64,000 nucleotides of DNA from the NCBI GenBank assembly GCA_038373865.1, contig JAXGGA010005807.1:1-64000 (forward strand). Direction: 5' to 3'. Both the position numbers and the translations under genes were made by a program. Shown piece by piece: positions 29,801-62,400 of the stretch. The notes beneath the pieces are model-generated. The model saw only the letters and a list, made by a program, of their open reading frames with translations. It made no database searches and was not told the origin of the DNA. The stretch is from Uloborus plumipes. Lineage: Eukaryota > Arthropoda > Arachnida > Araneae > Uloboridae. Positions within the stretch are counted from its first letter, which is position 1, and each line of letters starts with the position of its first letter.

Positions 29801-32800
29801 TTTATGTTATGTATATGAAACCTTTTTGTCCATTGAAATAAAAGGTATATTTCTTGTGTTTGACCTATTTGAAATTTTTGAAAATTTAGAATGAAAAAGA
29901 AATATCACTCTTGGGAAGAATGCATGAATCTGAGGGAAGTAAAGGTATGATTTACTGTTTGTTTGTTCTATTGAAGATAAAATAAAATAATTAAGCTCAC
30001 AAATATGGAATATAGAATATGTATATAAAACATCATTATTACTATTATTTTGATTTTTACCCTAAATTTATACTTGTCTGCTTGTACAAGAACAGTACAT
30101 ACCTTATTTAGTAAGGAACAGGATTCGAACATTCACTAGTGCTAGTTTTTTTTAAACACAATTTATACCATGTAGATTTTTTAGTTAAAGTAACTTTTTT
30201 AAATTATTATAAAATGTTTCATATACAGTCGACGCTCGTTATAACGACCACACGTTATAAAGACCATCCTAATATAACGACCGGTGAGAAAATCCCCAAC
30301 TGTATCCTAATATACTCTATGTTCTACCTCTTATAGCGACCACTCGTTATAAAGACCGTTTTCTGTAGGACGGAGACGGTCGTTATATCGAGCGTTGACT
30401 GTATATAAATTTTTTTTCAAACAATTCTACTAGCATGCCAATCCTTTCTCATTGCTATTTTCAGTCTTTGCAGAAACTTAGCCATGCTAATTTGGTGAAA
30501 TTAAAAGAAGTCATCCGGGAAGACAATACTCTTTATTTTGTTTTTGAATATATGAAAGAGAATTTATATCAATTAATAAAAAGCAGGTAAATGGTTCTAT
30601 TTTACTGAGCACTTCATGCATATGTTTTTTTTAATCATTAATCACATAATTTTCTGAGTGATATTTACTGATTTGATGTTTTTTTTTCCCTAGGGATAAT
30701 CCATTTTCTGAAAATGTGATAAAAAATATTCTTTTCCAAATCTTACAAGGTCTGGCTTTTATGCACAAACATGGCTTTTTTCATCGTGATATCAAACCAG
30801 AAAATTTGCTGTGTAAAGGACCTGAGCTCATTAAGATTGCAGATTTTGGTCTAGCTCGTGAGATCAGATCTAGACCCCCATACACCGATTATGTTTCAAC
30901 CAGATGGTCAGTATTAAAACTTTGCAAATTTTTTTCTCAGTTTATCTTTACTCTCGAAATAGACATTTATTTATGTGATTCCATTTTGATTTCTAGGTAT
31001 AGGGCTCCAGAAGTATTGCTCAGGGCAACAAATTATAATTCCCCTATTGATATGTGGGCCGTAGGTTGCATCATGTCAGAACTGTATACATTACAGCCCT
31101 TGTTTCCAGGAAGGACTGAAATTGACCAGATCTTTAGGATATGTTCAATTTTGGGAACTCCAGATCAAGTAAATATTTTTATTTACTAAGAGTGACACCA
31201 ATGAGGAACTAAGTACCCTCCTTGAATCCTTGTGTACCTGTTATTGTAAAGAAAGAATTTTGTCATTTTGTCTTTTAGAGAGATTGGCCTGATGGCTATA
31301 GATTAGCATCAGAAATGAATTTCAAATTCCCTCAGTTCAAAGAAATGCCAATCAGCTCTATTGTCAGGAATGCTGGTCAGGATGGTTGTACATTACTGAA
31401 AGATCTCTTGAGGTGGAATCCTGACAAGAGGCCAACAGCAGTCATGGTAACTACTTGATTTAATATTTTAAACTTGCTCTCTAGTTGAAATTTCCTAACT
31501 GCTTTTGCAATACTTTATGAATTTTTTCGACGAAGATGTTTTATGTATCACTTAAAGCTACTGTTAGTATTTATGCTCCGCCAGTGTAATCTCAGCTTGA
31601 ACTTTGAAAACATTTTTTCATTAATAGAAATTTTGATATCTCTGCTTTAATTTATTAAAATTATTACGGAGGTTTCATTCAACAGTGTGCTATGTACAGC
31701 ACATATTTAAATATTTTGTTTCCTTTTGCTTGAAGATGAAATATTTTTCCACTTATTATGATTATTTTTTAAAAGTCATGTATTGTTGTATTGACCACAT
31801 AAAGAAGTTTTCTTATCTCCTAAAAATATAGTTTTTCTTTTTTTAGGCTGCTCGTTATCCTTATTTCCAAAGTGGTTTTAAGCCCATGGCTCAGACAAAT
31901 CGTCGTGTTTCTGCCTTTAATCGGCACCTTCCAGATTCATATCAAGATATTTCGAAATTGAAACCTTCAGAGGTATGTTATTTGTATGCATTTACTTAGG
32001 ATATAATTGATGCTTCTGTTATAAGTATTTAAAAATCACTGCAAAGTATTTAAATCATTTTTATAGAATATTCTTTTGTAAACTTAAGCATCAAAATGGT
32101 ATTATTCTTTCTTAATCATATGATTCTTCCCTCATTTATTTTACTGTCGAAATATTTCGATAATTTTGGTGCATATTTAGGTTAATGTATCTTTTGTTAC
32201 TTCAAATCTTTCACAGGAAAAGTCGGCGTATAGAAGACGATGGGGTGGTCAGTTGACGCATGAAAATGAGCCTTCAGATTCTGAAAATAGCATTGATAGG
32301 GAAAAAATGTAAGTTTAATTTTATGTACGCAAGTTTGTGGTCATAAATGATTCCTTATTCAGTTGAGATGAAATGCTGTAAATTAAGGCTTTTATTAATA
32401 TTAAATTTTGAATCACTCGACGGTTTTAGTATAAATCAGATAGAGTTCTTTGCTTAAAGGCAGAATGCAAAAAATGCTGCAGGGATGAAGTGCTTTTAAA
32501 ATCCAGAACAGGCTAGGCTTTAAAAGGCCGCCCGTTTGATTCTAGCAATTGTGGACTGTGAGTGTAAAGCTTATCATTGAGTCCCTGGGAGTAGCATATT
32601 TATTTGGTTTTAACCTTGTATAACTTTAATTGTAAGTTGTTTTGTTCAAAATATGCATTACATATTGATCTTCAGTGCCTGGTTAATTCTTTGCTACACT
32701 GGTGACCTTAGACACATAATCTGGCATGATGCTGGTTCTTGTTAGCAGTGTTCTGGAGGCAATTTAGTTTGATACAGAACTTTCAGCTAAGATAGCTGTT

Positions 32801-51987: not shown

Positions 51988-53388
51988 TTAAGGGCCATTC
52001 CATCGTGACTAACGTAACATTCAGAGCTGATTTTATAACTTATTTTACCTGTAACTTAAATGATAAAAAATAATTTTTCGCTGTGTTGGTGGATTTGCAA
52101 TGTAGATGGTGTATATGTATTATTTTTGTTAAGAATTTAAAATAAAATTACTGACAACAGATATTTTTTCCACCAAAATAGTAGTGTGACTAACGTAACA
52201 TTTTTGCAACCTTGAAAAATAATGTTCATGTTATGAGGCAAAAATTTCTGAAATTTAAGCAAGTGAGAAAAATTGGTTGATATATTTGAAAAATATGGAA
52301 TGTTAGCATTTAAAAATATATATTATATTTAGTAAATTTTGAATTTTTTTAGTCTTAAGTGTCACTTTTCCTGAAAATGGAGTGTGACTAACGTAACATG
52401 ACTAACGTAACCATCGAATAACAAACAAAAGATTTCTCAAATAAAATTTATTATGGCTAATATTATTGATAATTACATTAATTTTTCCTTTTTTTAAACT
52501 TATTATGTTGCATATTTTTATTTATTTATATATTTATTATTATTTTTTTTATTTTATGTATTTTTTTATTTATTTTTCTGGGGTAAGAAATTGTAAATGG
52601 AAGGCTCTCTTTTAACTTAATTGAGTCTGTCAAAGAAAACTTAGCTTTCGCAAACTGAATATTATCAGATTTGGGCCATTTAAATCTTTGACCTGTTTCT
52701 CTCATCTTTGAGCTTTTGAGCTCAATGTTTGACCAATGTTGCCACTTCTTAGAGTTAACTCGCATTTTTTTTTCGAAACCAGTTTCTTCATTCTTATTAA
52801 TTTTTTTATAAAGTTGATAGAGTTCTTCTAAGTTATATATATAGGCAAACCCTTTTGTAGCCTCTTTCTCTTGTTGGCAACAAAGTTCTTTACATATTTA
52901 ACATCTTTCTTGTGGGGGAAAAAATCGCGAATTATCACATTATTATAAAATTAGAGAACTTATTGTTTTGTATTATTCGACAAACTTAACGATTGTCTAT
53001 GGGATTTAGGATTTCCTATATTAACTGCTATACCTGATGCCAGCTTTTGGATAGATATAACTTTCTTTCAGGGACTGTTGGCTAAAGCTTTTTTTCATAT
53101 TTCTTCGTTGCCTTTTCCAGTGCTTGCCTTGTGAGAAAAGGAGCTTCTGCAGATATGGAGGAAATAGTAGTTTGTTGTTTTGCAAGCATCTTACTTATTA
53201 ATTATTTTGAGGCTTCTCTTTCTTCCTCTTTTAACTTCCTACCCAAAATTGTGTTTTTTCGTTAAAAATGCATCAATATTTTTGACATTTCTCTTTCATA
53301 TGAATTTTATAGAGGCTCTGATTCGCCCGACTTCTTCTTTTCTGTTCTGAAGCAGTCAAAGGAGCTATTTTGCCTCAAATATTTCAAA

Positions 53389-53393
53389 TTAGT
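53389..53393. repeat. target-site duplication TTAGT (left)
   Basis: Exact 5-bp copy of 56254-56258 flanking the LTR retrotransposon, as expected from integrase-mediated insertion. Confidence 0.93.
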
Positions 53394-53563
53394 TGTTTTA
53401 TATGCACAAATAAATTGCATTGCTTATAAAACTAATGCTTTATTCGTAACATGACTAATTTAGTTTCAAGTCCAAATTTGAAATATCAGTAGAGAGAGTC
53501 ACGAATTGTTGCCAATGCGTACAAACAAAACATCTTATAGCCAGACCAAGGCAATACATTACA
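53394..53563 (-). repeat. 3' LTR
   Basis: 170 bp, TGTAATG...AAAACA on the minus strand (TG...CA ends). It contains a CTATAAGA TATA-like box and AATAAAG, a poly(A) signal. One A/C difference from the 5' LTR (within CACGAATTG versus CACGCATTG on the plus strand). Confidence 0.93.
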
Positions 53564-53575
53564 TTCCTCCCTTCT
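53564..53575 (-). promoter_or_regulatory. polypurine tract
   Basis: AGAAGGGAGGAA immediately before the 3' LTR on the minus strand, the expected position of the plus-strand primer. Confidence 0.8.
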
Positions 53576-53628
53576 AAATTCCTGAAAAGTAATATTATTT
53601 ATATGCACATAAAATGGGGAGGGGGGGA

Positions 53629-54972
53629 TCAGTAACCCAATCTTTCAGGTGCTTTTCGAGCTCTCCGAGGATACTTGTAAACAACATCATTCTCATTAAC
53701 TTCCCGAGAAGTCTCGTTTTGACTTTCTTTTACAATTGTATCCTTTTTATTTTCTAATTCGCCTTCGTTCGCTTCTTCTTCAGATTTATCTATTTCTGGG
53801 TTGTATGGCCAAGACTGTGGTGACTCCCATGTTTTGTTATCATGATTACAATAATTGTCTTCGCCATTCAACTCTTTAAACTTAACGGTCATGCCTTCCT
53901 TATGACATCTCCATATTTGATCTAGTTTGTATGCTTTCTGCCTTTCTTCTTCTAAATGCAATCTCCATCTGTAGATTTCATCCAAAAGATCCTGTTTCTC
54001 TTCGGATATTTTCTTTAACCGTACATCCAAATTTAAAGATCCTGCATTTTTCAAAATATCTGCTCCTTCCTGTGAAATAAGAGCCATTTTGGCAATCCTT
54101 TTTGGTCTTTTGGATTCTAATATCTTTTTTTCTCCATCCAACAGATTATTATCATCAGCATCTCTAATTTCTTCCTCCTCTTCTTTTCCTCCAACAAGGA
54201 CTAAACAATGTTCTGCTATTAATTCATCTCTGAATTTTATGCATTGTTTCAGAATTTCATTTTGGTTATTGAGATCTTTTAAGTCTTGATTTAGCAAATC
54301 ATGAGCCCTTGACACATTCCTGAAGTTCTTTTGAACCAATAAATACATTTCTTCAATTTCATGGAGTTCATCCTTTAATGTGTCAACTTGATAGGACAGT
54401 GTAGTCTTTTCGTTGTCTAGTTGAGCTGTTGTTATCATGGATTTACGAAGCTTTTCTTCCAGTTTTAAAACTTGATTTGTCAAAAGCTTGTACTCTTTGC
54501 TTCCTATTACGCCAGAGTATTCTTCACTACTCCGACGTGAGCTTTTCCGGGAGTCAACAGAGGCATAGGATGAAGTTTTCTCATTCCTGATTCCTCTAGA
54601 AGGTCTTGAAGGTTCAACACTTATGTGATCATCATATTGATATTCTCCTCGTCCATCATGCTCTTCAGCTTCTTTCTGCTTTTCAATTTCCCGCATTCGT
54701 ATCTCCCGAGCTTCAGTCCTACCTTGTCGCCTCGCAACAAGCGGAGCTTCAGCCGTTTTCAGTTTGTCGATTCGCTTCTGTAAATGACTATTTGCAGTTT
54801 CCAGCTCTTCTATTATTGCCTGTGATTCTAAATACTCTCTTTGAAGTTTTCGTTTTTCCGTTTTCAATTCATCTTCAGTTGCTTCAGCACTTTCTGCATG
54901 AGCCTTGTATCTGTTCAACTGTCCTTCAAGTCGAGACACACTTCTCTGCAGAGCTGTTATTTCTTGCTCAGC
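53629..54972 (-). CDS. captured LRRFIP-like coiled-coil ORF of the retrotransposon
   Basis: Continues the gag frame past UGA; a first Met is at 54939 (436 residues from there). Segments resemble LRRFIP1/2, cytoplasmic coiled-coil proteins that bind flightless-I and act in signalling. Residues 2-60 match the C-terminal coiled coil (SRLEGQLNRYK, EKRKLQRE, NSHLQKR). Residues 64-90 match the N-terminal region (TEAREIRMREIEKQ). Residues 140-335 match the central coiled coil (NEKTTLSYQVDTLKDEL, RDELIAEH, DVRLKKI, LEEERQK). The order is thus permuted relative to the family. Residues 370-436 are unlike LRRFIP and end YPRRARKAPERLGY, like the C-terminus of Ty3-type polyproteins. It is intronless and uninterrupted. 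Family order and identity are from memory of vertebrate and insect LRRFIP proteins. A highly charged coiled coil can mislead, but several separate motifs agree. Confidence 0.85.
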   Translation of the reverse strand, partial: AEQEITALQRSVSRLEGQLNRYKAHAESAEATEDELKTEKRKLQREYLESQAIIEELETANSHLQKRIDKLKTAEAPLVARRQGRTEAREIRMREIEKQKEAEEHDGRGEYQYDDHISVEPSRPSRGIRNEKTSSYASVDSRKSSRRSSEEYSGVIGSKEYKLLTNQVLKLEEKLRKSMITTAQLDNEKTTLSYQVDTLKDELHEIEEMYLLVQKNFRNVSRAHDLLNQDLKDLNNQNEILKQCIKFRDELIAEHCLVLVGGKEEEEEIRDADDNNLLDGEKKILESKRPKRIAKMALISQEGADILKNAGSLNLDVRLKKISEEKQDLLDEIYRWRLHLEEERQKAYKLDQIWRCHKEGMTVKFKELNGEDNYCNHDNKTWESPQSWPYNPEIDKSEEEANEGELENKKDTIVKESQNETSREVNENDVVYKYPRRARKAPERLGY

Positions 54973-56028
54973 TCATTTTAGCCTGTATTTGTAGCCACTA
55001 ACTTGCTTATTGGCTTCTCTTTGGACTTCCAGAAGTTTCATTTCAGAACCATTAGCTCCTGTCCTCATAAGATATAATTGTTCTTCACTAAATTTTTTAA
55101 AGTCATTAAACGATTGCACATCATTGTTGTTAAAATTATCGCCAACATAATTTATGCCAAAATAACCAGCGGGTGCGATGATGTTGTTAAATTTATATCT
55201 TGATTGCATGTCATTGTTATCCAAATTATCGCCAGCATCATTATTGCCAAAATAATGCTGTGCGGTAGTGGTATTATTTTTAAGCTTATTTCTTTTTCCA
55301 GCACACATTTTACTTAAATGGCCTTTAATTCCACAATTGTGGCATTTATATGAGCGAAACCGGCATCTGCTTATATTATGATTAAATTTACCACAGCACC
55401 GACATTTTCCCGATTTATATTCAGGTACACGATGATGGCGGAACTTCCTAAAATTTTCATTCACTTCTTGAACTCTATGAAGCCCACTAATTTGTTTTTC
55501 TTCTCTCACTTTAGCTGAGTGTAGACGAGCAGCTTCCATAGTTGTAGCTATCTCTACTGACTTTTGAAAAGTAATACTTTCAGATTCACAAAACAGTCTA
55601 TCTAAAATTGGACCACTACGGAGACCCACTATAAAACGATCTCTTAAAACTATATCTAAATTACCTTCAAACTTGCAATATTTAGCCAGTTCTTTCAATT
55701 TTGCACTCCAGTTAGCAATATTTTCATCTTCACTCTGGCATGCTCGATGAAATTTATACCGCTCAGCAAATACCGATCTTTTCGGTGCTACATGATTACT
55801 TAACTTTTCAATAAGTTCATCAAATTTTAAATCTTTGAGCTGCTTAGGTACACATAAATTTTGTAACAGCTTATAAGCCACTTCACCAACTGAGCACAAT
55901 AATATACTTGCTTTCCTTTTCTCATCCATAATTCCGTGGGCGATAAACATTTGCTCCAACATTTCATGATAAACTACCCAATCATCTTTTGATGGGTCAA
56001 ACTCTTTCAAGTTTCCAATTAAACTCAT
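54973..56028 (-). CDS. gag: Ty3-type Gag with two zinc knuckles
   Basis: 351 residues from ATG 56028, the first Met after the primer-binding site. Residues 1-165 have the retrotransposon capsid-like pattern (W..Y...L, RDRFIVGLRSG). Two CX2CX4HX4C knuckles follow (CRCCGKFNHNISRC and CHNCGIKGHLSKMC, about residues 212-245), which bind RNA in assembled particles. An imperfect repeat of an Asn-rich segment (NNDAGDNLDNNDMQS / GDNFNNNDVQS) lies at about 265-310. The last 26 residues (from NGSEMKLLEVQREANKQ) belong to the captured LRRFIP-like sequence, so capture begins inside this frame. It stops at UGA (54973-54975), with the next frame in the same phase. Gag identity is confident; function not testable here. 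Confidence 0.92.
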   Translation of the reverse strand: MSLIGNLKEFDPSKDDWVVYHEMLEQMFIAHGIMDEKRKASILLCSVGEVAYKLLQNLCVPKQLKDLKFDELIEKLSNHVAPKRSVFAERYKFHRACQSEDENIANWSAKLKELAKYCKFEGNLDIVLRDRFIVGLRSGPILDRLFCESESITFQKSVEIATTMEAARLHSAKVREEKQISGLHRVQEVNENFRKFRHHRVPEYKSGKCRCCGKFNHNISRCRFRSYKCHNCGIKGHLSKMCAGKRNKLKNNTTTAQHYFGNNDAGDNLDNNDMQSRYKFNNIIAPAGYFGINYVGDNFNNNDVQSFNDFKKFSEEQLYLMRTGANGSEMKLLEVQREANKQVSGYKYRLK

Positions 56029-56065
56029 CTTTCACAGTTTATGGAAGAAATTTTTACGCATGTAT

Positions 56066-56082
56066 TGTTTTTCTCGTCGCCA
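56066..56082 (-). promoter_or_regulatory. primer-binding site
   Basis: TGGCGACGAGAAAAACA on the minus strand, one base inside the 5' LTR. TGG pairs with the CCA end of a tRNA, as in many Ty3-type elements. The tRNA species is not determined. Confidence 0.7.
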
Positions 56083-56083
56083 A

Positions 56084-56253
56084 TGTTTTATATGCACAAA
56101 TAAATTGCATTGCTTATAAAACTAATGCTTTATTCGTAACATGACTAATTTAGTTTCAAGTCCAAATTTGAAATATCAGTAGAGAGAGTCACGCATTGTT
56201 GCCAATGCGTACAAACAAAACATCTTATAGCCAGACCAAGGCAATACATTACA
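56084..56253 (-). repeat. 5' LTR
   Basis: 170 bp, identical to 53394-53563 except one base. Followed on the plus strand by the second TTAGT (56254-56258). Confidence 0.93.
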
Positions 56254-56258
56254 TTAGT
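56254..56258. repeat. target-site duplication TTAGT (right)
   Basis: Exact partner of 53389-53393. Confidence 0.93.
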
Positions 56259-57019
56259 TTGATATATTTATTCACTCTTAACTGGAAATTTAAATAAACA
56301 CTAAAATAGTTAAGCTTTAAGCTACATTAATCTTTTTTTTAATTGTTACCATATCACATTCAAACTGTTACGTTAGTCACACACCTAAAATGTTACGTTA
56401 GTCACACTAATATTTTTGTATTAAAATTATCTAAAATAAATATTTTAGGATTTTCAAGTAGATATGATATAGACATAAGAAAATAAAGAGCTATGGTATT
56501 TAATTATTTTTAGTTCAGTTTAAAAATAGAAAACATTGCATTTCTGTGACTGACGTAACATAAAATAAGAAAGTGAAATAATGAAGATAATTAAAATGCT
56601 TATGTTATAAACTGAATGAAAAATGCTGTTAATTCAATCAGATACAACTCCAAACTTTCATAAGAAACGCAGTTCTTTTAAAAATTCACCGAAATTTTAA
56701 CATTATGCACGAAAACAATGACCAATGTTTTTAGCGTTTATTAAGACTTTTCTGCAGCCATGTACTTACAGAGTTCCAACATAAACACCAAAAAAGATTT
56801 TTCAAAATTTTTGCTAGATTCATATACTAGAAAGTATGTTGAATAAAATGATAGGTCACAGTTAAGTCTTTTAGGTACTTTTATTTTTTAGGCTGAGGTT
56901 GACATTTCTATGGAATGACCCTTAATATAATTAGCAAACATAAGATAAAATAGGGTGACTGATTGAAAAATTACAATTTAATGTATCTTTTCTATCATTT
57001 AAACTTAATCTGCTGTCTA

Positions 57020-57235
57020 TCCTGTCTAGTGGTCAGAGAAGTCTCATTGCCGATGGCGAGGTTATGGGTTCGAATCCCGGCTCGGGTACGGACGCACCTT
57101 CTCTCTCCAGTCCTTTTCCTTTCTTTGTGTGAATGTTGTGTCCTGTGAATGGTTGCCTATCTTATAAACGAGTCTTTATGGCATGTGCGCACTATGGAAG
57201 TCAGGCTTTACACCAAATGATAGTACAGTTGAAAA
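57020..57235 (+). mobile_element. tRNA-derived SINE
   Basis: A box-like CTAGTGGTCAGAG, B box GGGTTCGAATCCC, then an unrelated body ending near TTGAAAAAAGG. It differs in sequence from the 29-kb SINE, so two SINE families are present. The anticodon arm does not fold as a clean tRNA, so I do not call a tRNA gene. Target-site duplication not resolved. Confidence 0.7.
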
Positions 57236-57239
57236 AAGG

Positions 57240-59192
57240 AAGCAGCGCACCCCAAATTGTCAGCCTAGCTGACTGATGCTCTGCTGACTCTTTTGATCTC
57301 GACTTTTCTTTTTAGCCTCCACCAGAGCCCATCTCTGCTTGTCCATATATATACACTGGCAAAGGTCTGAAAACATAATATAATAAAATATTGGGTCTTT
57401 CACCAGCCTATTTGCTATGTGATGACTACCAATGAAAGTCAACGTCCTCCAATCTTTAATCATAACATATACATTACAAAGTTGTACTTCAAGTAGTCTT
57501 ATCAAAACACTGCAAACAAAAAGTTAAATTTTCTTTCCCGTTTAGAAGATTTAAAAAATCAAACAAGAGTTTCCATATGCAATTGATCACAGATATGAAA
57601 ATGAGTGAATATTGTTAACTAATAATTTCCAGAAGTACATAGACACTCTTAATTTTTACATATAATACTCCCTTTAAATTAAGTTGAAACTCATACAACT
57701 GAATCAAGTAAAACATGTTATACTAAGATATGGAAATAAAATGAAACACCTTATTTTGATAAAAATGAGATTCTTCATAAAAATATACATGACAATCAAA
57801 ATTCAGGCTAATTGTAAATTTCACACAAAAAAGTACAATTTCACACACATTGCTTGATTTAAAATCCAAAAATATAGTAAAGGATTGTATGGCACTTTTT
57901 AGGTAACAATTAAAAATCTAAGAATCGGCTTTAAAATGGCACACATTCCATATTTTTATAAATTCAAAACATAAGTTGCATTATACTCATTTTAACATTA
58001 TTAACTTTAATTATTTTTCATGTTCTTAATGAAATAGACACAATCTCTAGAATTACATGCTTTTCGGATATTTGAAAGACCAAGTCAGAAGAAATGTATT
58101 GACTTTTCTCCTCCAACATAAATTGGTACAAATGCTTCTACATTCCCTTCAACAAATTTCTTTTACACCTGACTATCCTTTTGCTGTGAAAAAAAAATGA
58201 GAATTTGTATGAATTTATGAATATTGTGTTACATAATATGAATTAGATCTTTACTTATTGGTAGTTAAACAAATTTAAAACATGAATTACTAATACATGT
58301 TATGATCTTTTGTGCTTTGAAAAATCACACTTAAAATTTTGTATTGTTTGTTTCATTTTTGGACAAATATATATTATATTTGTGAGCAAAATTTGACTAG
58401 TGTTGCACAAACATCAGACTCAGCTCATGGCTTTTATTTTGTTGGAATAAGGCTAACCCTCGATATTAGTTTTAGTGTTTAATGATATGGTGCAATGAAC
58501 GTCTGCTTCAGCAAATATTTAAAACAGTAAGTTTTAACAATTGCATGTTCTATTCTTATGAACAAAGGCATGCTTATTAATTAAAATAAGAACGATCTAT
58601 AGAAAAGTCGAACATAAAATTGTCCAAGCTTAGAAACTGCAGGATTGCTGTCTGTCCACTGCTGTGACTCACATTTTATTATAACCTATTTTCTGTAATA
58701 TGTAGTTATTTAATTAAAACTTTGAACTCTGAACAATATTTTATGGGGAATGTATATTTGTGAACTGTAAAGAAAAACTAATCACTGCTCACACGTAATT
58801 TTAGAGATCCTTTATAAGGAGAGACTTGATGGAAATTTTACATTGTACACAACATGAGCGTCATCACATTCGACTTTTGTTCCAATTTCAGGTTATAAAA
58901 TGCACTTGAAATACAATAAACTGATTGCTAACATTGTCGTAGGTTCAGTTTATTTATTTTTTTTTTTTTTATCGTTAGCTGATGTAGCTGCTAGAATCTG
59001 CATTTTTAGTTAAAGAAATTAAAATACTTAAAACTTAGTAACATCTTTGCTCAACTTTATCTTGCAGAATTTTACGTTAGTAAAGTTCACTCTCCCTATA
59101 AAGGGTCTCTACTTATCATTAGCTTTTGCTCATGAAATGTATCAGGAATAATGCTTCACATAAACAGTTCTAACTCCACTACATCAACCATA
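57240..59192. other. 3' flank of the BPNT2-like gene, no coding exon
   Basis: AT-rich. A stop-free minus-strand stretch near 57260-57505 has no family likeness. Confidence 0.35.
58949..58954 (-). promoter_or_regulatory. candidate poly(A) signal of the BPNT2-like gene
   Basis: AATAAA on the minus strand, about 240 bp past the stop codon at 59193-59195. Plausible by position only. Confidence 0.35.
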
Positions 59193-59437
59193 TCAACTTG
59201 AAAGACTTGATAGTTTATGTACAAAATCATCATGATTATGTAGAGAAGCTACGAGGCCCTTTTCATTTTTCACAATTGTCGGATCTCCGTAATTGATAGT
59301 TGTTCCATCCAGTGCAGTCATCTTGCCTCCCAGTGCATTCAACAATGCATTGCCAGCACATATATCCCATTTCTTTATAAGAGTTACATGAATATAGGCA
59401 TCTGCTTTTCCTTCTGCTACTTGTAGTGACTTGAAGC
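59193..59437 (-). CDS. BPNT2: BPNT2-like last coding exon
   Basis: Acceptor CTTATAG just above 59437. Encodes [52 protein letters not shown] and a tail ending [12 protein letters not shown] at 59193-59195. WD.CAG.A...A.GG is the IMPase-family signature. Confidence 0.94.
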
Positions 59438-62400
59438 CTATAAGACAAACAAATTAATTAAAATTGGAAGGGATGTTATATGGCAGTTGTGACTAACCTA
59501 TTTTTACCCTCACGCCACACCTTATATTGAGATGAATCTCACAAGGGCCGGAATAAATATAAATTTCAATATATTTTTGGTTTTCTAGATGATATGGGAA
59601 AACAAGGCAAATGAAAGAAAAGTGCAAACCTAGAATCATTTTTATCATAGCTATATGCTTTATCATAACTATACCCCAGGGTCAGTCTAATGTAAGTCCA
59701 TTTCTGTTACTTTTCAGCAGTGTGCAAAAACAAATGTCTGATGCATACTAAGGATGGAACTCAAATCTTTTAACACTGCTAAATAACTATGAAGGTATTT
59801 CTTTTATAGAATAATTTTCTCATGGGTAGATGTGAATAAGATTCTACATGCAATGCAGTAATAATTTGAAAATTGTCATTTTTGGACTTACGTTAGTCTT
59901 GTTCAGAGGTACAGCTTTATAGGTACAAAATTTTCATCTGTTCTTTTGAAACAAATTTCTAACTGTTTGGCTTTAAATTTGCAGCAATCACTCAGAATAC
60001 TGAATAAACATAATCAGTGGTTTCGGAAGTTTTTAGCACCTATTTTTTGAGTTATAACATTGAACACGAGAATTGGCCACATGGATTAGCTTCGCAGGCT
60101 GTAAATTGGGCACCGCTGTTATATGGGGATTACCAACATTATTTATTTTGCATGCACATTTAAAATTAATAGCAAAATGTTTTTACAGACTTTTTCGCTC
60201 ACTTCTCCATAGAAAAAACTTTTCCCTGTAACATGATATTAAAGTTACAATACTTAACTTTTAACTTAAGGGAAAATGCGAAGGATTTTATCTGATATGC
60301 AAAAGAGTTGAAGATTAGAGTTAAAAGGCGGAAAGCTTCTGCAAAAAGAAGAGATGGTCGGCAGCTTCATTAACCATATTTCTGCAAAAAGAATTTAAGT
60401 GTTTACCAAAAGGGCTGTCTAGAAATAACATTTTCTTCTTCAAAATTATTTGATCTCCTGTTTGTTGTTCGTTGGGTAAGACCTGTGGTTGGAAAAACTA
60501 CATTTCTCTTGTAGCGAACTACAACTACTTTGTGACAAATGTAGTTAACTACAACTACTTTTTTTTTAATGTAGCAACTACAAACTACTTTTGAATTGTA
60601 GTCGCTACTTCGCTACTTTTTAAAAAATGAATAAATAAAAAGCATACACCGTTTAAGGATTGATCGCAAAAATTCGACGCAAAAAGTGGTTTACATTAAT
60701 AAATTTACTCATTTGAATATGGAATAGAACTAGGAATTGTCTTTAAATTTATTTGTTACTTTTCCTTTTTGTTCCTTTTTTGCTAAAATTTGTCCTTTTT
60801 AGATTTTTTTTTTCCGCAATTTGAAGGAATATTCGCCACAAGAAAGGATTCCAAAGTTGAAAGATTGAAAGAATTCAACCTTCAATTTTTTTTTAATTTC
60901 TTGCAGGGAATATTTAAGAACATGAAAATTATTTGAAGGAGAATATAAAAATTATGAATCCAAATAAACCAATGACATAAAACAGATAGTATATATCTCG
61001 TCAAAATGATGTATTTAAGACCTGCTCATATTTTTATGGTTCTTATTTCTCATTGCTTCCACTGCTGTACTTGTGCAAGATTTGCACCAGTCAGAATCAA
61101 TTAAACCTTTTTTTTTTCATTCGTTCTCTTTTAAAAATTTTTTTTCATTTGTTTATTTATTTTTAAATTTAAAAGTAGTTTCCAGAAATCGCTACAAACT
61201 ACTATTTTTTTTTGTATCGCGCTTCTCACTACTCTACTGTTTTTAAAAGGTAGTACACTACACTACAAACTACTAAAAAATGTAGCTACTACTGTAGTTT
61301 CGCTACTTGTAGCGTGCTACTTCCGACCACTAGGTAAGACAAACTACGGTTAAGATGAAGCAGTAAATCAAAGATGGTATACCGAACACAGAAAGCTTCT
61401 GCAAAAAGAAGAGATGGTTGGCAGCTTCATTAACCACACTTCTGCAAAAAGAATTTAAGTGTTCACCAAAGGAGCTGTCCAGAAATGACATTTTTATTTT
61501 CAAAAAGTTTCGACCTCCTGTTTGTTGTTTGTTGGGTAAGACAAACTACGGTTAAGTGGTACATCAACAATCCCTTGGAGTTTGTTTTAACATATTTCGA
61601 CTGTATTACAGAAAACAAAAATGTCATTGCTCAAAAGAAAAATTAATTTTACTTTTGATATCTTGAATTCAAATTATGTTTTCTGCAATTACGAATTGCG
61701 ATAGGTGTGTGTAAAGGACATGGGTGTCACCATCCAGAGATGCAGGGGCCGGTGGACAATGTCTCGGGAAGTGGAGCAGCGGAACGCCCTGTAGCAGACT
61801 TCAAGTTCAATATGAAAAATGGACTACACAATGTCTGAGGTTCAAAAAGCAATTTGTCATTGTTAAAAAAAAAAAAAAAAACATTTTAATTAAAGTGAGT
61901 GACCAATTTTCAATATATACCTGCACCCCCAGCAGAGATTACTTCTGTTTCAGGTCCAAATGCTGCTTTGGCTACCTCCTTTACCTTGCCAGAGTGAGAA
62001 CGAGACACAATAATTTTAAATGGTTTGCTCGGGTCGTGAGCCTGAGCGGCTGATGCAAGCTTTGGATTGGAAGTGCCACGTCCATCCCAGCCCCATACTG
62101 CAAAAAATGAATGCAAATGCTATTTCAAATTATTTTGTTAGTTCAAATAATATAACAATATTCAATAAAACTTTCTGTAATGAGCAAGGAATAAATTTTG
62201 CAAAAAACATGTTTTTTTAGTTTTCAGCACACTTTTAGTAACTTTCAAAAATAGGTCCCAAGAATTAATTTGGCACTTAGTCAAACAGAAATTTAGGCAG
62301 CAAATCAAAACTTTAAGTCAAAAAATGCAACTAATCACTGCTTATTTCTAACACATCACCAAGGTGATATCTTACTAAATTTAAAGTAACTTAGAGGCCT

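What the first reader, a model, noticed from the sequence alone, without database searches (positions are those of the whole stretch)
53394..56253. Young LTR retrotransposon that has replaced pol with a host LRRFIP-like gene
Seen: 170-bp LTRs (one mismatch), TTAGT duplication, primer-binding site, polypurine tract, Gag with two zinc knuckles. Where protease, RT, RNase H and integrase should be there is an intronless frame with several motifs of LRRFIP1/2 coiled-coil proteins, closed by a short polyprotein-like C-terminus (YPRRARKAPERLGY). Known: some retroviruses and a few plant retrotransposons transduce host coding sequence; I know of no described arthropod Ty3-type element carrying LRRFIP. 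Inference: this is a transducing, helper-dependent element, and its frame is largely intact.
Basis: partly seen in the sequence, partly recalled or inferred. Interest (0 to 1): 0.95.

Follow-up and report, generated by a model that had tools for sequence, protein, structure and literature searches.

The report
Jumping element carrying a rotated host gene
A small, recently inserted retrotransposon lacks its enzyme genes and carries instead an intron-free copy of the animal gene LRRFIP whose two ends are swapped as if it had been copied from a circle, which would be explained if the element had picked up a circular RNA.

Summary
On the minus strand, 53394-56253 is an LTR retrotransposon: 170-bp LTRs with one mismatch, TTAGT duplication, a primer-binding-like site, a polypurine tract and a 351-codon Gag with two zinc knuckles. 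Pfam finds no protease, RT, RNase H or integrase; instead there is a frame with a strong LRRFIP match (E 4e-58).

The finding hints only in one word ('unpermuted') at the key fact: this LRRFIP copy is circularly permuted. The C-terminal piece comes first (profile 271-300, E 4.5e-8), then, in frame, profile 1-267: one full turn with essentially no overlap and a few linker residues missing. Gag, both pieces and the tail share one frame, broken by one TGA 26-27 codons into the LRRFIP part.

Best reading: a helper's reverse transcriptase switched from element RNA onto a circular LRRFIP RNA, copied one turn and switched back. The chimera is shown; the circular template is inferred. The host gene, its exon borders, further copies and a helper could not be sought: genome search did not complete and the protein search was off. 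Host gene capture by LTR elements is known, and LTR-flanked circRNA retrocopies are reported in mouse, so this is a new variant.

The parts
56084..56253 (-). 5' LTR, 170 bp, TG...CA
   Evidence: direct repeat, 99% identical to the other LTR
53394..53563 (-). 3' LTR, 170 bp
   Evidence: one mismatch to the 5' LTR
56254..56258 (.). target-site duplication TTAGT, upstream copy
53389..53393 (.). target-site duplication TTAGT, downstream copy
56073..56082 (-). primer-binding-like site TGGCGACGAG, one base inside the 5' LTR (complementary to a tRNA-Ser(GCT) 3' end as recalled)
   Evidence: sequence; tRNA identity recalled, not tested; no tRNA gene in the window
53564..53575 (-). polypurine tract AGAAGGGAGGAA abutting the 3' LTR
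54973..56028 (-). Gag ORF, 351 codons and stop; its last 26-27 residues are LRRFIP-derived
55363..55404 (-). first zinc knuckle CRCCGKFNHNISRC
   Evidence: sequence
55303..55344 (-). second zinc knuckle CHNCGIKGHLSKMC
   Evidence: sequence; Pfam zf-CCHC at Gag residues 228-242, E 0.002, below cut-off
54757..55053 (-). LRRFIP C-terminal piece (A), placed first
   Evidence: profile 271-300 of 300, E 4.5e-8; ungapped alignment to the recalled human C-terminus
54973..54975 (-). in-frame TGA inside piece A
54754..54756 (-). permutation joint (KLK-T-AEAPLVARR): C-terminal end joined in frame to the N-terminal region
   Evidence: profile position 1 aligns with the next residue
53914..54753 (-). LRRFIP N-terminal and central piece (B), placed second
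   Evidence: profile 1-267, E 4e-58; E 2.3e-58; end taken
53629..53913 (-). tail in the same frame, to the stop, ending YPRRARKAPERLGY; possibly the remnant of the Pol C-terminus
   Evidence: no Pfam match for 53901-53629; resemblance recalled only

Best explanation
A pol-less, helper-dependent LTR retrotransposon whose enzyme region was replaced by one complete turn of a circular LRRFIP RNA. A helper's reverse transcriptase, copying co-packaged RNAs from the 3' end, left the element RNA near the end of pol and entered a circular LRRFIP RNA in the variable linker before the last coiled coil. It copied once round, through the back-spliced joint, until it met its own start point where the template was already copied or digested, then returned to element RNA at the end of Gag. 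This gives Gag-[LRRFIP C-term]-[LRRFIP N-term..centre]-tail, integrated with a 5-bp duplication. SHOWN: LTR element anatomy, no pol domain by Pfam, LRRFIP identity, permutation, one-turn structure, shared frame, one TGA. INFERRED: template switching, circular RNA as template, helper, Pol origin of the tail. UNKNOWN: whether the chimera was made in the event that inserted this copy or belongs to an older mobile family.
For: Two Pfam matches in swapped order, 1-267 and 271-300, without overlap (in one search, which was not cut by me at the joint, the same two parts appear as 1-267 and, weakly, 266-292, a two-position overlap). Against a human LRRFIP1-type protein recalled from memory, piece A aligns to 286-384 of 393 without gaps (54 of 99 identical; score 280 against a maximum of 93 in 300 shuffles), and piece B to 23-277 (score 328 against a maximum of 104 in 300). 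The pieces abut with 8 residues missing in a variable linker. Otherwise only the extreme N-terminus, the last 9 residues and the stop are absent, as expected of a circle of internal exons. Two independently placed ends would abut within 10 residues in about 5% of cases under a simple uniform model. The matched region has no intron, while human LRRFIP1 has 29 exons (PMC6406849, passage). LRRFIP1 circRNAs are listed in human cells (hsa_circ_0119391, PMC7176856, passage) and goat (PMC8944478, passages). PMC5408686 (passages) describes template switching by LTR elements and mentions mouse circRNA retrocopies with flanking LTR sequence.
Against: The host gene and its exon borders were not available, so the joint KLK-T-AEA could not be tested as a back-splice. 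It could equally be a microhomology jump between two linear mRNAs, since an Ala lies near the joint on both sides in the recalled human protein. The listed mammalian LRRFIP1 circRNAs (904 and 2842 bases in those tables) were not shown to be the near-whole-coding circle needed here, and nothing is known of this host's circRNAs. Only one copy is known. The Pol origin of the tail has no database support. No helper was found in the window.
Confidence: 0.55

Rival explanations
1. Two linear LRRFIP mRNAs (or one used twice) were copied in succession: the reverse transcriptase left one near its 5' end and resumed near the 3' end of the coding region of another, then returned to the element RNA.
For: Template switching with packaged linear mRNA is the model of LTR-mediated retroposition given in PMC5408686 (passages), which says it can in theory occur several times. 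An Ala near the joint on both sides leaves room for microhomology.
Against: Requires a third switch, and entry and exit within about 10 residues of each other by coincidence (about 5% under a uniform model). The joint is in frame.
Confidence: 0.2
2. The permutation arose after capture or in DNA: a tandem duplication or an extrachromosomal circle of an LRRFIP retrocopy, or recombination between LRRFIP-bearing element copies, followed by trimming.
For: Tandem and circular DNA intermediates of LTR elements are established knowledge (recalled). The element has a diverged 72-bp duplication in the Gag linker, so internal duplication has occurred in it.
Against: Needs several steps that happen to leave one turn. 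No leftover second copy of an LRRFIP part is listed in the element (repeats of 20 bases or more).
Confidence: 0.15
3. The host lineage already has a permuted LRRFIP-like gene or transcript (genomic rearrangement or exon shuffling), and the element captured that.
For: Not excluded: the host genome could not be searched.
Against: No such gene is known to me. The Pfam family has the normal order, and the abutting ends of the insert would still need explaining.
Confidence: 0.07
4. Ordinary pseudogene debris or an assembly artefact in which LRRFIP retrocopy fragments were trapped between LTRs.
For: One TGA is present; a single copy is known.
Against: TSD, near-identical LTRs, and one frame shared by Gag, both LRRFIP pieces and the tail (799 codons with a single internal stop; the other two same-strand frames of the 55056-53629 part hold 36 and 52 stops). 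Three joints in frame by chance is about 1 in 27, or 1 in 9 if the tail is not counted as coding (arithmetic, not a test).
Confidence: 0.03

Closest known systems
Bs1 of maize and other LTR elements carrying host gene pieces (PMC13317346 and PMC6431247, passages)
   Same: LTR element carrying host coding sequence, explained there by transduction or template switching
   Different: Bs1 carries segments of three plant genes (membrane ATPase, xylan endohydrolase, glucanase). The passages seen (12 of 15 and 12 of 16 places) describe captured ORFs downstream of pol or in lieu of env; none describes a permuted insert or LRRFIP
LTR-mediated retrocopies in animals (Tan and co-workers, as described in PMC5408686; original not read)
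   Same: Host mRNA joined to LTR element sequence by template switching
   Different: The model there is for linear mRNA; here one full turn in circular order, in frame with Gag and with a tail
circRNA-derived retrocopies (mouse cases with flanking LTR sequence, as mentioned in PMC5408686; original not read)
   Same: Order that a circular template explains simply; LTR sequence involved
   Different: As I recall, those are pseudogenes near LTR sequence, not cargo inside a complete LTR element in frame with Gag
Acute transforming retroviruses (recalled)
   Same: Helper-dependent, host gene in place of viral genes, often a Gag-host fusion
   Different: Not a virus and no env seen; the host gene is an LRRFIP and is permuted
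Mag-type Ty3 retrotransposons (recalled)
   Same: Short LTRs, 5-bp duplication, TGGCGACGAG primer site, two-knuckle Gag
   Different: No pol, so clade membership cannot be tested with RT

Membership tests
LTR retrotransposon | Direct terminal repeats TG...CA with short target-site duplication | tested here: met
LTR retrotransposon | Polypurine tract beside the 3' LTR | tested here: met
   sequence
LTR retrotransposon | Primer-binding site complementary to a host tRNA | tested here: inconclusive
   TGGCGACGAG one base inside the 5' LTR; the tRNA is recalled, and no tRNA gene is in the window
LTR retrotransposon | Gag with zinc knuckles | tested here: met
   two CX2CX4HX4C motifs by eye; zf-CCHC E 0.002, below the curated cut-off; weak PDB nucleocapsid hits, best E 0.11
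Autonomous Ty3-type element | Protease, RT, RNase H, integrase | tested here: not met
   no such Pfam match in either ORF; hence non-autonomous
Mag clade of Ty3 | RT/integrase phylogeny | not testable with these tools
LRRFIP family (PF09738) | Profile match above cut-off | tested here: met
   197.5 bits against 28.2; piece A alone 33.2 bits
LRRFIP family (PF09738) | Normal N-to-C order | tested here: not met
   profile 271-300 precedes 1-267
circRNA-derived retrocopy | Permuted order without intron | tested here: met
   at protein level; exon order itself is unknown
circRNA-derived retrocopy | Joint at host exon borders (back-splice) | not testable with these tools
Transducing element | Further copies with the same cargo; helper with the same LTR | tested here: inconclusive
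   none elsewhere in the window; genome not searchable

The most novel reading that the evidence does not exclude
A retrotransposon in an animal genome traded its pol genes for a complete turn of a host circular RNA, giving a Gag-fused, rotated LRRFIP polyprotein that is mobilised by a helper. [quoted passage not shown] This would make circular RNA a source of new mobile genes.
Probability: 0.35. Interest if true: 0.88.

Novelty: new variant of a known kind. Interest (0 to 1): 0.68.

Why it matters
Host gene capture by LTR elements is known, but the product rarely records what the template was. A one-turn circular permutation is a signature that can be read in sequence and checked against host exon borders, so it would make the question 'do circular RNAs feed the evolution of mobile elements?' directly testable. 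It also gives a case in which a host gene linked elsewhere to RNA binding and innate immunity stands where pol should be, in frame with Gag. As to print: a search for LRRFIP, LTR retrotransposon and Gag (at least two of three) gave 1,801 papers; the 15 listed, where papers with all three should rank first, hold no LRRFIP. A search for LRRFIP with retrotransposon alone timed out, so this is a limited look.

Tried and rejected
Generic coiled coil: rejected, because LRRFIP outscores all other families by a wide margin and the PDB hit is LRRFIP1. For the short piece A alone 77 families score at E up to 10, many of them coiled coils; of the 25 shown only LRRFIP passes its cut-off. Sister copy, partner or LRRFIP exon elsewhere in the window: none (best chance matches 20 bases by blastn, E 2.5 by tblastn). 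LRRFIP or Gag relatives in viral contigs: none confirmed. A degenerate pattern for the peptide ELKxEKRKLQRE (x any residue) gave 0 viral contigs and 1 bacterial contig, in which the matching frame reads as a different protein. A structure of the first 199 Gag residues from one sequence was poor (mean pLDDT 43), so I made no fold search. No Rfam match and no tRNA in the window. dN/dS was not possible without a host gene or a second copy. A neutral simulation at LTR-level divergence (0.6%) expects about 0.5 stops in the 447-codon frame, so the single TGA fits decay after insertion and says nothing about selection. A leaky Gag-Pol-like stop was considered and left open. Two paper searches that ran gave nothing decisive, apart from leading to the reviews cited.

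Full report
What is there. On the minus strand of the window, between two copies of TTAGT (53389-53393 and 56254-56258), lies an LTR retrotransposon of 2860 bases. Its LTRs are 170 bp, begin TG and end CA, and differ at one site over the 172 bp that match (p = 0.006, 95% interval 0.0001-0.032). One base inside the 5' LTR is TGGCGACGAG, and a purine tract abuts the 3' LTR. From memory, not from any call, the former fits the 3' end of tRNA-Ser(GCT), as in Mag-type Ty3 elements. Gag (56028-54973) has two CCHC knuckles by eye; Pfam sees one (E 0.002, below cut-off) and no confident Gag family, and the PDB gives only weak nucleocapsid-type hits (best E 0.11).

What stands in place of pol. No protease, RT, RNase H or integrase family matches either ORF. 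The frame 54972-53629 matches LRRFIP (PF09738) at 197.5 bits (E 4e-58) over profile positions 1-267, and human LRRFIP1 (PDB 4h22) is the only PDB hit at E up to 1 (E 6.7e-10).

The order is rotated. The last 27 residues of the Gag ORF match LRRFIP positions 266-292, weakly (18.4 bits, below cut-off). Taking 55056-54751 with its TGA as X, profile 271-300 matches at E 4.5e-8 (33.2 bits, above cut-off), while 54753-53629 matches 1-267 at E 2.3e-58. So the C-terminal part stands before the N-terminal part, and the two ends of the insert meet at about position 266-271 of the normal order, with at most two positions of overlap. The joint is ...KRIDKLK-T-AEAPLVARR..., in frame. Missing, by that comparison, are the extreme N-terminus, nine C-terminal residues and the stop, and eight linker residues at the opening.

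Frame. Gag, piece A, piece B and the tail share one frame of 799 codons with one internal TGA (54975-54973). In the LRRFIP-to-end part (55056-53629) that frame has 2 stops, the TGA and the terminal one, against 36 and 52 in the other same-strand frames and 24, 22 and 13 on the other strand. Three joints in frame by chance is 1 in 27, or 1 in 9 if the tail is not counted as coding. That favours a fused product that mattered at some time, but it is weak evidence from one copy. In this copy the TGA leaves Gag plus 26-27 LRRFIP residues; the first in-frame ATG after it is at 54696. Neutral simulation at the LTR divergence expects about 0.5 stops in the 447-codon frame, so the TGA may simply postdate insertion.

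How it probably arose. Reverse transcription runs from the element's 3' end. A helper's enzyme that jumps onto a circular RNA can copy once round until it reaches the part already copied and digested, and then must leave. This predicts a rotated insert of one turn with little missing at the opening, as seen. Two linear mRNAs copied in succession would need a third switch and a coincidence of ends (about 5% within 10 residues under a uniform model); that figure is a rough guide, not a test. Template switching by LTR elements, and mouse circRNA retrocopies with LTR sequence in the flanks, are described in PMC5408686 (passages seen). Human LRRFIP1 has 29 exons (PMC6406849, passage), and LRRFIP1 circRNAs are listed in human cells (904 bases, PMC7176856, passage) and goat (2842 bases, PMC8944478, passages). 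Neither was shown to be the circle needed here, and none of this shows that this host makes it.

What is not known. Whether the host LRRFIP gene has exon borders at the joint; whether other copies or a helper with this LTR exist; and whether the insert is as young as the LTRs. The genome search did not complete (13 attempts, last), the protein database was off, and the collections that did answer hold viral contigs and prokaryote genomes.

Setting. The element sits inside another mobile element: TTAAGGGCCATTCCAT at 51988-52003 and TTAAGGGTCATTCCAT on the opposite strand at 56925-56910 form terminal inverted repeats flanked by TTAA. Five exact copies and one near copy of GTGACTAACGTAACA lie inside it, where 0 are expected by chance. 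So the LTR element is the younger of the two (inference from nesting). Of 10 further ORFs of the window scanned with Pfam, out of 385 stop-to-stop frames of 45 or more residues counted, 2 matched: a protein kinase exon and, about 3 kb from the element, an inositol-monophosphatase-family exon at 59196-59453.

Verdict. A real, chimeric, pol-less LTR element with a rotated LRRFIP insert. Host gene capture by LTR elements is known, so this is a new variant of a known kind. The rotation is the unusual part, and it turns a general question into one that a single host gene model could settle.

Noticed in passing
51988-56925: A TTAA-flanked element with 12-bp inverted ends (GGGCCATTCCAT / GGGTCATTCCAT), resembling piggyBac-type ends as recalled, with subterminal GTGACTAACGTAACA repeats (6 in the window with up to 1 mismatch, 0 expected). 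The LTR element is nested in it.
   Followed up: partly
55094-55255: A diverged 72-bp direct duplication (76% identical, spacing 90) in the Gag region after the zinc knuckles, giving an Asn-rich repeat.
   Followed up: no
30677-31186: Protein kinase exon (Pkinase E 2e-35); reads like a MAK/ICK-type kinase by recall.
   Followed up: no
59196-59453 (minus strand): Exon of an inositol monophosphatase family gene (E 2.1e-14).
   Followed up: no
57020-57380: Stretch with a tRNA-like GGTTCGAATCC box, resembling a tRNA-derived SINE by eye.
   Followed up: no
1849-2245: Tandem array of a 106-bp unit, 3.7 copies.
   Followed up: no
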